Virus record (IMG/VR): IMGVR_UViG_3300009184_000138
Location: 1-30,628 of that record
Source: a virus
DNA length: 30,628 bases
Direction: 5' to 3' (one strand)
In this document: in pieces, positions 26,072 through 30,602 of the stretch
Numbering within the stretch: the stretch's first letter is position 1
Layout of the letters: the number at the start of each line of letters is the position of its first letter
Program-made: the position numbers and the translations under genes
Notes under the pieces: model-generated
The model's database searches: none
What the model was told of the DNA's origin: nothing
Seen by the model: the letters and a program-made list of their open reading frames with translations, nothing else

Positions 26072-26467
26072 TTATCCCCTATCAAGTTGGTCGGCAAGAT
26101 TATGGTCATAGTCTGCCTTGTTAACAATTCCTAGCTTCATTTTGATCTCGCCGTTTACGACTTGCAAGCCATACCCCCGGGCGAGGCGAGGTTTGGCAAC
26201 TTTGCGGTATTCGGTGAATCTTGTATTGTCCCAGTTCTGCATGACCGCTATTTCTCCCTTTTTCCAAGAAATATAGGCTTTTGAGACTCTTATTTGTACA
26301 TATTCGGTAATTGGAAACGTTTCTTTCTGAAAAGTGTCGTTTAGCGTACTCAAAGAGATGCCGGCAACCTCTGCAAACAGTTTTAGCGAGATTCCACGGT
26401 TTTCATCCGCAATAAAGCGTTTAATGATGCGTAGAAGGTCGGTTTTAAGAATGGTTGTTGGACGCAC
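26072..26467 (-). CDS. helix-turn-helix protein, possible small terminase or regulator
   Basis: The 131-residue product starts at GTG 26467 and overlaps the end of the large terminase by 23 bases. Residues about 27-62 (LKLFAEVAGISLSTLNDTFQ) look like an HTH or winged DNA-binding segment; the rest is charged and ends DYDHNLADQLDRG. An HTH protein right after terL could be a small terminase in unusual order or a transcription regulator. No leucine-zipper oligomerisation region is evident. AGGT lies about eight bases before the GTG. Uncertain. Confidence 0.5.
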   Translation of the reverse strand: MRPTTILKTDLLRIIKRFIADENRGISLKLFAEVAGISLSTLNDTFQKETFPITEYVQIRVSKAYISWKKGEIAVMQNWDNTRFTEYRKVAKPRLARGYGLQVVNGEIKMKLGIVNKADYDHNLADQLDRG

Positions 26468-28600: not shown

Positions 28601-28818
28601 TAATGCAACCCCTCAGAATACTGAGCAATCACCGCCTTCAAGTTATCAATCTCAGCCTGGGCTTGAGTCATCATCCGAGTACTCTCACCATGCACCCGCA
28701 TTAACTCTTTAAACATATCAATCTTAGTCATCGACCAGACACGATCCAAGTACTGACGCTTAAACGCCTCATCAGCAGTCTCAACCAGTTGTTCAATCAC
28801 CGCAGCACCGTTCATCAT
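28600..28818 (-). CDS. small helical protein
   Basis: A 72-residue product (MMNGAAVIEQLVETADEAF, then helices with EIDNLKAVIAQYSEGLH). I chose ATG 28818 because it forms an ATGA overlap with the preceding stop and has GGAGA six bases upstream; ATG 28830 is too close to its own ribosome site. The helical, coil-like make-up could suit a small terminase or a packaging accessory, but there is no HTH. Unknown function. Confidence 0.55.
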   Translation of the reverse strand: MMNGAAVIEQLVETADEAFKRQYLDRVWSMTKIDMFKELMRVHGESTRMMTQAQAEIDNLKAVIAQYSEGLH

Positions 28819-29036
28819 AAGATTCTCCATACCCTGATCCCATTATCCTGTTTACGAGCACTAAATTTCCAACCCAACACCTTGTTAGCACGGTAGTTAG
28901 CATTATTAATAGTCGGTAACTTACCTTCAGGTACAAAGAAACTATCTCCTACATCCATATCCTTATACGGATAGGTGTATCTTCGTATCTTAGCTGTCAT
29001 CGGTACATCTTTCTCAATACCAAGTATATCTGCCAT
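28815..29036 (-). CDS. small phage protein with DxxVGDSFFVP motif
   Basis: The 73-residue product (MADILGIEKDVPM) contains YKDMDVGDSFFVPEG and KFSARKQDNGIRVWRI, a layout I recall from widespread small phage proteins of unknown function (DUF7303-like; name from memory). I chose ATG 29036 for the AGGGAG site eight bases upstream; the frame is open to 29201, but that part runs through the control region and lacks a ribosome site. It is the first gene of the leftward operon. Confidence 0.65.
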   Translation of the reverse strand: MADILGIEKDVPMTAKIRRYTYPYKDMDVGDSFFVPEGKLPTINNANYRANKVLGWKFSARKQDNGIRVWRIL

Positions 29037-29132
29037 GTACATCTCCCTATATATCGGGATGTTAGCATAAACACGTTTTTCTTTTGGGGGGATGATGGAA
29101 TGGTGCACCCGCTCACCCATACTCAAACCCAA

Positions 29133-29341: not shown

Positions 29342-29358
29342 AACCATACGGTATGGTT
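29342..29358. promoter_or_regulatory. 17-bp dyad, candidate operator
   Basis: AACCATAC-G-GTATGGTT is a perfect 8-bp inverted repeat around one base. On the - strand it directly follows TATAGT (29359-29364, 5 of 6 to a -10 box), so a repressor bound here would cover the start of a leftward transcript. The matching -35 is weak. Confidence 0.45.
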
Positions 29359-29498
29359 ACTATATGTATAACTTGAACCCCTATTGTCTATTCTGAGGTC
29401 TGATATGTATAATATATAAAAACAAGTATATACATCTATAGATAATAACTAAGTATTACTTAATATATCAGTACAGTCTATAGTCTAAGGTATAGGTA

Positions 29499-29512
29499 TA
29501 TAGACGTCTATA
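29499..29512. promoter_or_regulatory. 14-bp perfect palindrome
   Basis: TATAGACGTCTATA is fully self-complementary and lies ten bases from the 16-bp palindrome. It could be an operator half-site pair. Confidence 0.4.
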
Positions 29513-29522
29513 CTGTGGTGAA

Positions 29523-29538
29523 ATCTCGAGCTCGAGAT
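29523..29538. promoter_or_regulatory. 16-bp perfect palindrome over leftward start site, candidate operator
   Basis: ATCTCGAGCTCGAGAT is a perfect 16-bp palindrome and lies immediately downstream of the leftward -10 box (29540-29545). The predicted leftward start falls near its centre, the usual place for a repressor site. Confidence 0.5.
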
Positions 29539-29539
29539 A

Positions 29540-29567
29540 TTTATAAGTTATACTTTAGCAGGGTAAA
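29540..29567 (-). promoter_or_regulatory. candidate leftward sigma70-type promoter
   Basis: On the - strand TTTACC (29562-29567, 4 of 6 to TTGACA), a 16-base spacer and TATAAA (29540-29545, 5 of 6) face the structural operon, whose first gene starts about 500 bases away. Confidence 0.45.
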
Positions 29568-29604
29568 CACCTATAAATATATATCAATAATAATAAGAAA
29601 TACA

Positions 29605-29634
29605 TTGAACTGATATACATAAACGTGATCTAAT
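29605..29634 (+). promoter_or_regulatory. candidate rightward promoter for the ArdC-type gene
   Basis: TTGAAC (29605-29610, 4 of 6), an 18-base spacer and TCTAAT (29629-29634, 5 of 6) would start transcription near 29641, about 50 bases ahead of the ATG at 29690. Confidence 0.4.
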
Positions 29635-29640
29635 CAAGTA

Positions 29641-29657
29641 TCGAACAATTGGTTCGA
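29641..29657. promoter_or_regulatory. dyad TCGAAC-AATTG-GTTCGA over the rightward start site
   Basis: A perfect 6-bp inverted repeat with a 5-base centre begins at the predicted start of the rightward transcript, a natural operator position. Not a tRNA T-arm: no cloverleaf surrounds it. Confidence 0.45.
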
Positions 29658-29689
29658 CATTAGACAGAGTTTTACATTAGGGGTATCGA

Positions 29690-30544: not shown

Positions 30545-30552
30545 AACGTTAG

Positions 30553-30568
30553 ACCGTACCGGTACGGT
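30553..30568. promoter_or_regulatory. 16-bp perfect palindrome after the ArdC-type gene
   Basis: ACCGTACCGGTACGGT is fully self-complementary, lies eight bases after the stop codon and 35 bases before the next ATG. It may be an operator or, as RNA with the following TTT, a weak terminator. Confidence 0.4.
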
Positions 30569-30602
30569 TTACCGGTTTATTGTTCGTAATGGGGATTACA
30601 AA

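What the first reader, a model, noticed from the sequence alone, without database searches (positions are those of the whole stretch)
29342..29657. Divergent phage control region with perfect dyads placed over predicted start sites
Five dyads (29342-29358, 29434-29443, 29499-29512, 29523-29538, 29641-29657) lie within 316 bases. The 16-bp palindrome sits on the predicted leftward start, the TCGAAC dyad on the predicted rightward start, and the 17-bp dyad directly follows another -10-like box. The dyads differ in sequence, so more than one DNA-binding protein may act here. No classical repressor gene is seen nearby; the HTH protein at 26072-26467 is the only candidate in the window.
Basis: partly seen in the sequence, partly recalled or inferred. 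Interest (0 to 1): 0.6.

Follow-up and report, generated by a model that had tools for sequence, protein, structure and literature searches.

The report
Phage early-gene RNA hairpin start cassettes
One of the five palindromes in this lake-virus control region looks like a hairpin that folds in the RNA at the start of the early message, part of a hairpin-plus-ribosome-site cassette repeated through the early genes of this virus family, whereas most of the other palindromes are not kept in relatives and are probably incidental.

Summary
The five dyads are real; the three longest (8, 7 and 8 bp arms, spacer 0-1) exceed chance (3 found, 0.23 expected, about 1 in 1000 shuffles). Relatives split them. 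The 16-bp and 10-bp palindromes are not palindromic in the three close relatives compared; TATAGACGTCTATA survives in one of three. AACCATACNGTATGGTT persists (perfect in one relative, degenerate in two) and may be a DNA operator. A more deeply conserved dyad, TAAGTATTACTTA (29450-29462), was missed. The TCGAAC dyad (29641-29657) changes sequence yet keeps pairing in every relative of its clade, starts where the mRNA should start, and is followed by a Shine-Dalgarno. Family-wide, 15 of 34 early leaders have such a hairpin (2.7 expected), as do 36 of 66 early intercistronic gaps (11.9 expected) but 1 of 19 late gaps (2.2 expected). After the ArdC gene a sister clade has a tandem hairpin with 15 of 20 pairs changed on both sides and GNRA loops, absent from Rfam. 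So dyad 5, and ACCGTACCGGTACGGT after ArdC, most likely act as RNA stem-loops in early-gene start cassettes resembling mycobacteriophage ESAS. Shielding of mRNA ends is my inferred function; no transcript was mapped.

The parts
29641..29657 (+). Dyad 5, TCGAAC-AATTG-GTTCGA: proposed 5'-terminal RNA stem-loop of the early mRNA
   Evidence: Starts 6 nt after the -10 box; in relatives the same place has other sequences that still pair; 15/34 family leaders vs 2.7 expected
29605..29634 (+). Candidate early promoter P2, TTGAAC-18-TCTAAT, just upstream of the hairpin
   Evidence: Sequence match only; the equivalent place in relatives carries TTGACA-16-TATACT (L008, L013) or TTGTAA-16-TATAAT (L002)
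29658..29689 (+). Linker CATTAGACAG-N6-ACATTAGGGGTA with Shine-Dalgarno AGGGG before the ArdC start
   Evidence: Nearly the same linker follows different stems before unrelated genes in L005 and L100
29690..30544 (+). ArdC-like antirestriction protein, first rightward (early) gene
   Evidence: Pfam ArdcN 3.5e-34 and MPTase-PolyVal 3.7e-48; phrog_7245 9.7e-86
30550..30571 (+). TAGACCGTACCGGTACGGTTTA: intercistronic stem-loop after ArdC (palindrome core 30553-30568)
   Evidence: the same site in 21 of 26 non-redundant relatives has a hairpin, 3.8 expected
29342..29358 (.). Dyad 1, AACCATAC-N-GTATGGTT: candidate DNA operator
   Evidence: Perfect with another centre base in L002, degenerate right half in L005 and L100; distance to the P1 -10 box is 59/58/49/49 bp in window/L100/L005/L002
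29375..29420 (+). Conserved GAACCCCTATT and candidate promoter P1 with -10 TATAAT at 29408-29413
   Evidence: Conserved in the window and its three close relatives
29450..29462 (.).
   Evidence: Exact in L005, L100, L002, L008, L025; 1 mismatch in L009, L014, L083, L020
29523..29538 (.). 16-bp palindrome ATCTCGAGCTCGAGAT: not kept as a palindrome
   Evidence: L005 ATCTACAGCTCGAGAT, L100 ATTCACAGTTCGAGAT, absent in L002
29499..29512 (.). 14-bp palindrome TATAGACGTCTATA: kept in L100 only
29434..29443 (.). 10-bp palindrome ATCTATAGAT: unremarkable, not kept
29075..29132 (.). T-run/GGGGGG-N-GGTGCACC-N-CAAACCCAA element between the leftward gene and the A+T-rich region; deeply conserved, function unknown
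28815..29042 (-). First leftward gene, 75 aa, conserved in the whole family (YPYxxMxVGDSF...RVWR); used to anchor the comparison

Best explanation
29342-29657 is the divergent control region of a ~35-kb freshwater tailed phage. Its dyads are not one class. The dyad on the rightward start (29641-29657) is an RNA stem-loop formed at the 5' end of the early transcript from promoter P2, directly upstream of the ribosome-binding site. It is one copy of a start cassette (variable stem-loop, short conserved linker, Shine-Dalgarno, ATG) used in the early operon of this phage family; a second copy (30550-30571) follows the ArdC gene. Well supported by comparison: the structure, its position and its early-gene bias. 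Inferred: that the stem-loops shield the 5' and processed ends of early mRNAs from 5'-end-dependent RNase attack and keep the Shine-Dalgarno free, so each short early cistron is expressed on its own. Separately, dyad 1 (29342-29358) is the best candidate for a true protein-binding DNA site, acting on promoter P1; the 16-bp and 10-bp palindromes are probably incidental.
For: Position: hairpin starts 2-8 nt after the -10 box in 15 of 34 non-redundant family leaders, 2.7 expected; hairpin centres peak 12-16 nt after the -10 box (12 of 34, at most 5 in any other 4-nt bin). Pairing without sequence: stems TCGAAC, CCGTTT, GCAACA, ATGCACTA, TGCAAGTTA, TATGAGA; every pair position holds several pair types. 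Within homologous L008/L013/L107 leaders with a common CGTAA loop two pairs change on both sides and two become G-U. Early bias: hairpins in 36/66 early intercistronic gaps (11.9 expected, sd 3.0) but 1/19 late gaps (2.2 expected). RNA rather than DNA: G-T versus mirror A-C departures are 25:2 after ArdC and 20:2 in early gaps (overlapping sets), about 1:1 in shuffles. Tandem hairpin after ArdC in a sister clade: 97.5% paired, 15/20 pairs with two-sided change, covariation 0.674 vs 0.264 shuffled and at most 0.12 slid; tetraloops on one stem GNRA in 32 of 33 distinct contexts. Start motif CTAAC before 26/55 early gaps and 19/34 leaders, 6/140 late starts. Dyad 1.
Against: In this window the stem is only 6 bp, about -6 kcal/mol, and the leader folds no better than shuffles (z = -0.32; the post-ArdC stretch z = 0.03), so the case rests on relatives. 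19 of 34 family leaders lack a stem of 6 bp or more at that place. Leader stems are nearly all perfect, so the G-U test says little for them (2:0). The strongest covariation and the GNRA loops are from a sister clade with tandem hairpins; the window has no match to that model. No transcript ends are mapped; P2 has a weak -10 (TCTAAT). Gene calls in relatives were mechanical. Protection of mRNA is inference by analogy.
Confidence: 0.55

Rival explanations
1. The dyads, including TCGAAC at the rightward start, are DNA operators for phage or host repressors; relatives differ because each has its own repressor specificity (as in heteroimmune phages).
For: Dyads centred about 8-12 nt downstream of a start are typical operator positions; leader stems are mostly perfect dyads at a fixed place; an XRE/cro-C1-like HTH protein is encoded in the window; dyad 1 is conserved in close relatives.
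Against: Loop length varies from 3 to 8 nt; similar hairpins sit between early genes where no promoter lies directly upstream; G-T far exceeds A-C in intercistronic stems; the HTH protein is 95% identical in L002, whose start-site stem (GCAACA/TGTTGC) is unrelated.
Confidence: 0.22
2. The stem-loops are cis-acting antitermination RNAs like HK022 put (or nut boxB), letting RNA polymerase read through the early operon.
For: Early-operon specificity; one sits just downstream of the promoter; the sister clade has two adjacent stem-loops of about 50 nt, and put is two stem-loops of about 70 nt just downstream of PL (PMC9378689).
Against: Stems are not conserved in sequence; the element recurs at several gene starts within one operon; it stands a short distance upstream of the Shine-Dalgarno; the window copies are single hairpins.
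Confidence: 0.1
3. The intercistronic stem-loops are intrinsic terminators or attenuators between early genes.
For: Two overlapping terminator-like calls at 30550-30576; several stems are G+C-rich and some are followed by TTT or TTTT.
Against: 0 of 15 leader hairpins and 6 of 34 gap hairpins have at least 5 T in 8 nt after the stem (post-ArdC set 8 of 21); they stand a short distance upstream of the next gene's Shine-Dalgarno.
Confidence: 0.12
4. Dyad 5 in this window is a chance dyad in an A+T-rich leader.
For: Weak stem and unremarkable folding energy here; short dyads are common.
Against: All clade members compared have a stem at this exact place with different letters; family-wide excess.
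Confidence: 0.1

Closest known systems
Start-associated sequences (SAS) and extended SAS (ESAS) of cluster K mycobacteriophages (PMC3203893)
   Same: Short repeated sequence at translation starts of a subset of non-structural genes, about half with an inverted repeat with variable spacer just upstream; function unknown there too
   Different: ESAS inverted repeats have a conserved 17-bp consensus within a phage; here stems differ in sequence from gene to gene and phage to phage and only pairing, position and linker persist; no sequence relation; unrelated phages
5'-terminal stabilising stem-loops of bacterial mRNAs (ompA, papA, hairpin appended to bla; reviewed in PMC3997798)
   Same: A stem-loop at the very 5' end directly upstream of a ribosome-binding site, with no conserved stem sequence needed
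   Different: Those are single host leaders or constructs; here the stem recurs between cistrons of a phage early operon; stabilisation untested
HK022 put RNA (PMC9378689)
   Same: Early phage transcripts; stem-loops near the promoter; two adjacent stem-loops in the sister clade
   Different: put is about 70 nt with conserved sequence and internal features that touch the RNAP beta' zinc-binding domain; not shared as far as tested, and the window has single hairpins
RNase III-processed intercistronic hairpins of the T7 early region (from memory, not checked here)
   Same: Hairpins between early genes of a phage operon
   Different: T7 hairpins are longer cleavage sites; the present stems are mostly 6-13 bp

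Membership tests
Mycobacteriophage ESAS/SAS | Short conserved sequence next to translation starts of a subset of non-structural genes | tested here: met
   CTAAC before 26/55 early gaps and 19/34 leaders vs 6/140 late starts; CATTAGACAG..ACATTAGGRGTA before three different genes in the window clade
Mycobacteriophage ESAS/SAS | Inverted repeat with variable spacer just upstream | tested here: met
Mycobacteriophage ESAS/SAS | 13-bp GGGATAGGAGCCC and conserved 17-bp arm sequence | tested here: not met
   Stems differ between copies; the published SAS sequence does not appear in the leaders listed
HK022 put antiterminator RNA | Two adjacent stem-loops of about 70 nt in the early transcript | tested here: inconclusive
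   Met in outline by the sister-clade element (about 50 nt), not by the window
HK022 put antiterminator RNA | Suppresses termination by binding RNAP | not testable with these tools
   Needs a transcription assay
Intrinsic terminator | G+C-rich stem followed at once by a run of T | tested here: not met
   0/15 leader hairpins; only 6/34 gap hairpins and 8/21 post-ArdC hairpins have a T-rich tail
DNA operator (dyad 1, 29342-29358) | Dyad sequence conserved among close relatives with the same regulator | tested here: met
   Perfect in L002, degenerate in L005 and L100; the HTH protein is about 95% identical in L002
DNA operator (dyad 5, 29641-29657) | Dyad sequence conserved among close relatives | tested here: not met
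   TCGAAC/CCGTTT/GCAACA/ATGCACTA in relatives
Known Rfam RNA family | Match at the gathering score | tested here: not met
   No match in the window or nine relatives; the only weak match is to the S15 leader, 18.6 bits against a cutoff of 39.5

The most novel reading that the evidence does not exclude
A freshwater phage family marks its early cistrons with an RNA stem-loop start cassette under strong pairing selection, and one clade carries a new tandem-hairpin RNA with GNRA-type tetraloops after the ArdC antirestriction gene, not in Rfam, that controls early mRNA processing, stability or translation (or acts as a put-like antiterminator).
Probability: 0.5. Interest if true: 0.65.

Novelty: new variant of a known kind. 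Interest (0 to 1): 0.52.

Why it matters
It changes what to test: a dyad at a phage start site that looks like an operator is better explained as an RNA stem-loop once relatives are compared. It supplies a second, unrelated case of start-associated inverted repeats in phage early genes (after mycobacteriophage ESAS, whose function is open), here with enough sequence divergence to show that pairing is what selection keeps. The tandem-hairpin RNA is a well-defined, covariation-supported candidate for an Rfam entry and for a direct functional test.

Tried and rejected
Terminal repeats at the window ends: none. Close DNA relatives in the phage collection: none by megablast. Shared use of AACCATACNGTATGGTT beyond the clade: other exact matches in viral contigs lie in unrelated sequence. 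A common motif of dyad 1 and the palindrome at 30553: half-sites look alike (ACCATAC, ACCGTAC) but the spacing differs and no series of sites exists. Folding energy as proof of the window hairpins: not significant. Rfam: nothing. Aligning leader hairpins by MAFFT failed to register the stems (A4), so pair types were tabulated by hand. First search for the linker used a wrong pattern, repeated correctly. Fold search with the first leftward protein gave no informative match. Whether the T-run/GGGGGG element is a packaging site could not be settled.

Full report
Setting. The window is a 30.6-kb virus record, a linear fragment. Genes left of 29042 run leftward (terminase, portal and other structural genes); those right of 29690 run rightward (ArdC-like antirestriction protein; at the other end of the fragment RecT-like, SSB-like, RusA-like and methyltransferase genes). 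Four MAG contigs carry TerL relatives (two beta-proteobacterial bins, one alpha, one Patescibacteria); these may be binned phage contigs, so the host stays open.

Observation. All five dyads are present at the stated coordinates and the three long ones exceed chance. The short one does not stand out. The start sites are predictions; sigma70-like matches in the region are not above shuffles.

Conservation. Three informative close relatives (L005, L100, L002) and four more distant ones (L008, L009, L013, L107) span all or most of the region; L001 and L082 are 99.9% identical and uninformative. Dyad 1 (29342-29358) is perfect in L002 with a different centre base and has a degenerate right half in L005 and L100. 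Between it and the -10 box TATAAT (29408) the distance is 59 (window), 58 (L100), 49 (L005) and 49 bp (L002), that is, with or without about one helical turn; with four sequences this is suggestive only. ATCTATAGAT and the 16-bp palindrome are not palindromic in relatives; TATAGACGTCTATA is kept in L100 alone. The motif ACTAAGTATTACTT (29448-29461), with dyad TAAGTATTACTTA, is the most conserved piece of the A+T-rich part and extends to distant relatives; a weak leftward -10 candidate sits beside it.

Dyad 5 as RNA. At the place of TCGAAC-AATTG-GTTCGA relatives have CCGTTT-AACTG-AAACGG (L005, L100), GCAACA-AACC-TGTTGC (L002), ATGCACTA-CCGTAA-TAGTGCAT (L008), ATGTACTG-ACGTAA-CAGTGCAT (L013), ATGCAGTA-ACGTAA-TACTGCGT (L107), TGCAAGTTA-CCTAA-TAACTTGCA (L111). 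L008, L013 and L107 share the loop CGTAA, so they are homologous; among them two pairs change on both sides and two become G-U. Over 34 non-redundant leaders with a recognisable promoter, 15 have a stem of at least 6 bp starting 2-8 nt after the -10 box against 2.7 expected, with centres piled up 12-16 nt after the box. The first gene downstream differs among these phages, so the stem goes with the promoter, not with one gene. In the predicted fold the Shine-Dalgarno is free in the centroid.

The cassette. In the window clade the stem is followed by CATTAGACAG-N-ACATTAGGRGTA-ATG before ArdC (window), a 250-aa gene (L005) and a 90-aa gene (L100), with three unrelated stems. Across the family, 36 of 66 non-redundant early intercistronic gaps hold a hairpin (11.9 expected, sd 3.0) while 1 of 19 late gaps does (2.2 expected). 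The motif CTAAC stands before 26 of 55 early gaps and 19 of 34 leaders but 6 of 140 late starts. Few hairpins have terminator tails.

After ArdC. The window has TAGACCGTACCGGTACGGTTTA at 30550-30571. The homologous site in 21 of 26 non-redundant relatives has a hairpin (3.8 expected), with 25 G-T but 2 A-C departures, a strand-specific sign of RNA pairing (shuffles about 1:1). In a sister clade the element is two adjacent hairpins: on 14 sequences 97.5% of cells pair, 15 of 20 pairs show two-sided change, covariation 0.674 against 0.264 shuffled and at most 0.12 slid. A covariance model finds it on the early strand of many relatives at E down to 3e-15, the training sequences among them, and not in the window. 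An exact-stem search with a GNRA loop in the pattern finds 45 contigs; all 43 with ArdC in the fetched stretch have it on the ArdC strand, 23 of them 14-19 nt after the end of the ArdC match; with the loop left free, 32 of 33 distinct contexts on that stem are GNRA. Rfam has no such family.

Mechanism. Shown by comparison: paired structure, fixed place, early bias, linker. Inferred: the 5' stem leaves no single-stranded 5' end for RppH and RNase E, and intercistronic stems protect processed ends and insulate each Shine-Dalgarno. A 5' hairpin is known to impede 5'-end conversion and stabilise mRNA (PMC3997798). The absence of stem sequence conservation favours a structural rather than a sequence-specific role. 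put-like antitermination and attenuation remain possible for the tandem element.

Limits. The window's own stems are weak by energy, half the family leaders lack the stem, gene calls in relatives were mechanical, and no expression data exist. My probability for dyad 5 acting as RNA is about 0.65; for the end-protection role given that, about one half.

Noticed in passing
29075-29132: A T-run followed by GGGGGG, then GGTGCACC (GGGGCNC in most relatives) and CAAACCCAA: the most deeply conserved noncoding element near the control region; it keeps its place even when extra genes sit between it and the first leftward gene (e.g. L093, L078). Packaging or replication site is possible; function unknown.
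   Followed up: partly
L065:2061-2107 (-), L042:1955-2002 (-), L130:1870-1917 (-) and many relatives: Tandem-hairpin RNA after the ArdC gene with GNRA-type tetraloops and strong covariation, not in Rfam.
   Followed up: yes
L042, L050, L165 post-ArdC gaps: RNAfold suggests that a segment upstream of stem 1 can pair with the 5' arm of stem 2, competing with stem 2; possible switch.
   Followed up: no
26072-26467 (-): HTH protein conserved next to TerL in at least 64 relatives; model has an XRE/cro-C1-like N-terminal domain and a beta domain. Small terminase or regulator.
   Followed up: partly
L002, between the first leftward gene and the GGGGGG element: An extra leftward gene is inserted here; by eye it looks like a Cys-rich, possibly HNH-type protein (not tested).
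   Followed up: no
29408-29413 and 29629-29634: Two rightward promoter candidates about 220 bp apart, both with counterparts in close relatives; the early operon may have tandem promoters.
   Followed up: partly
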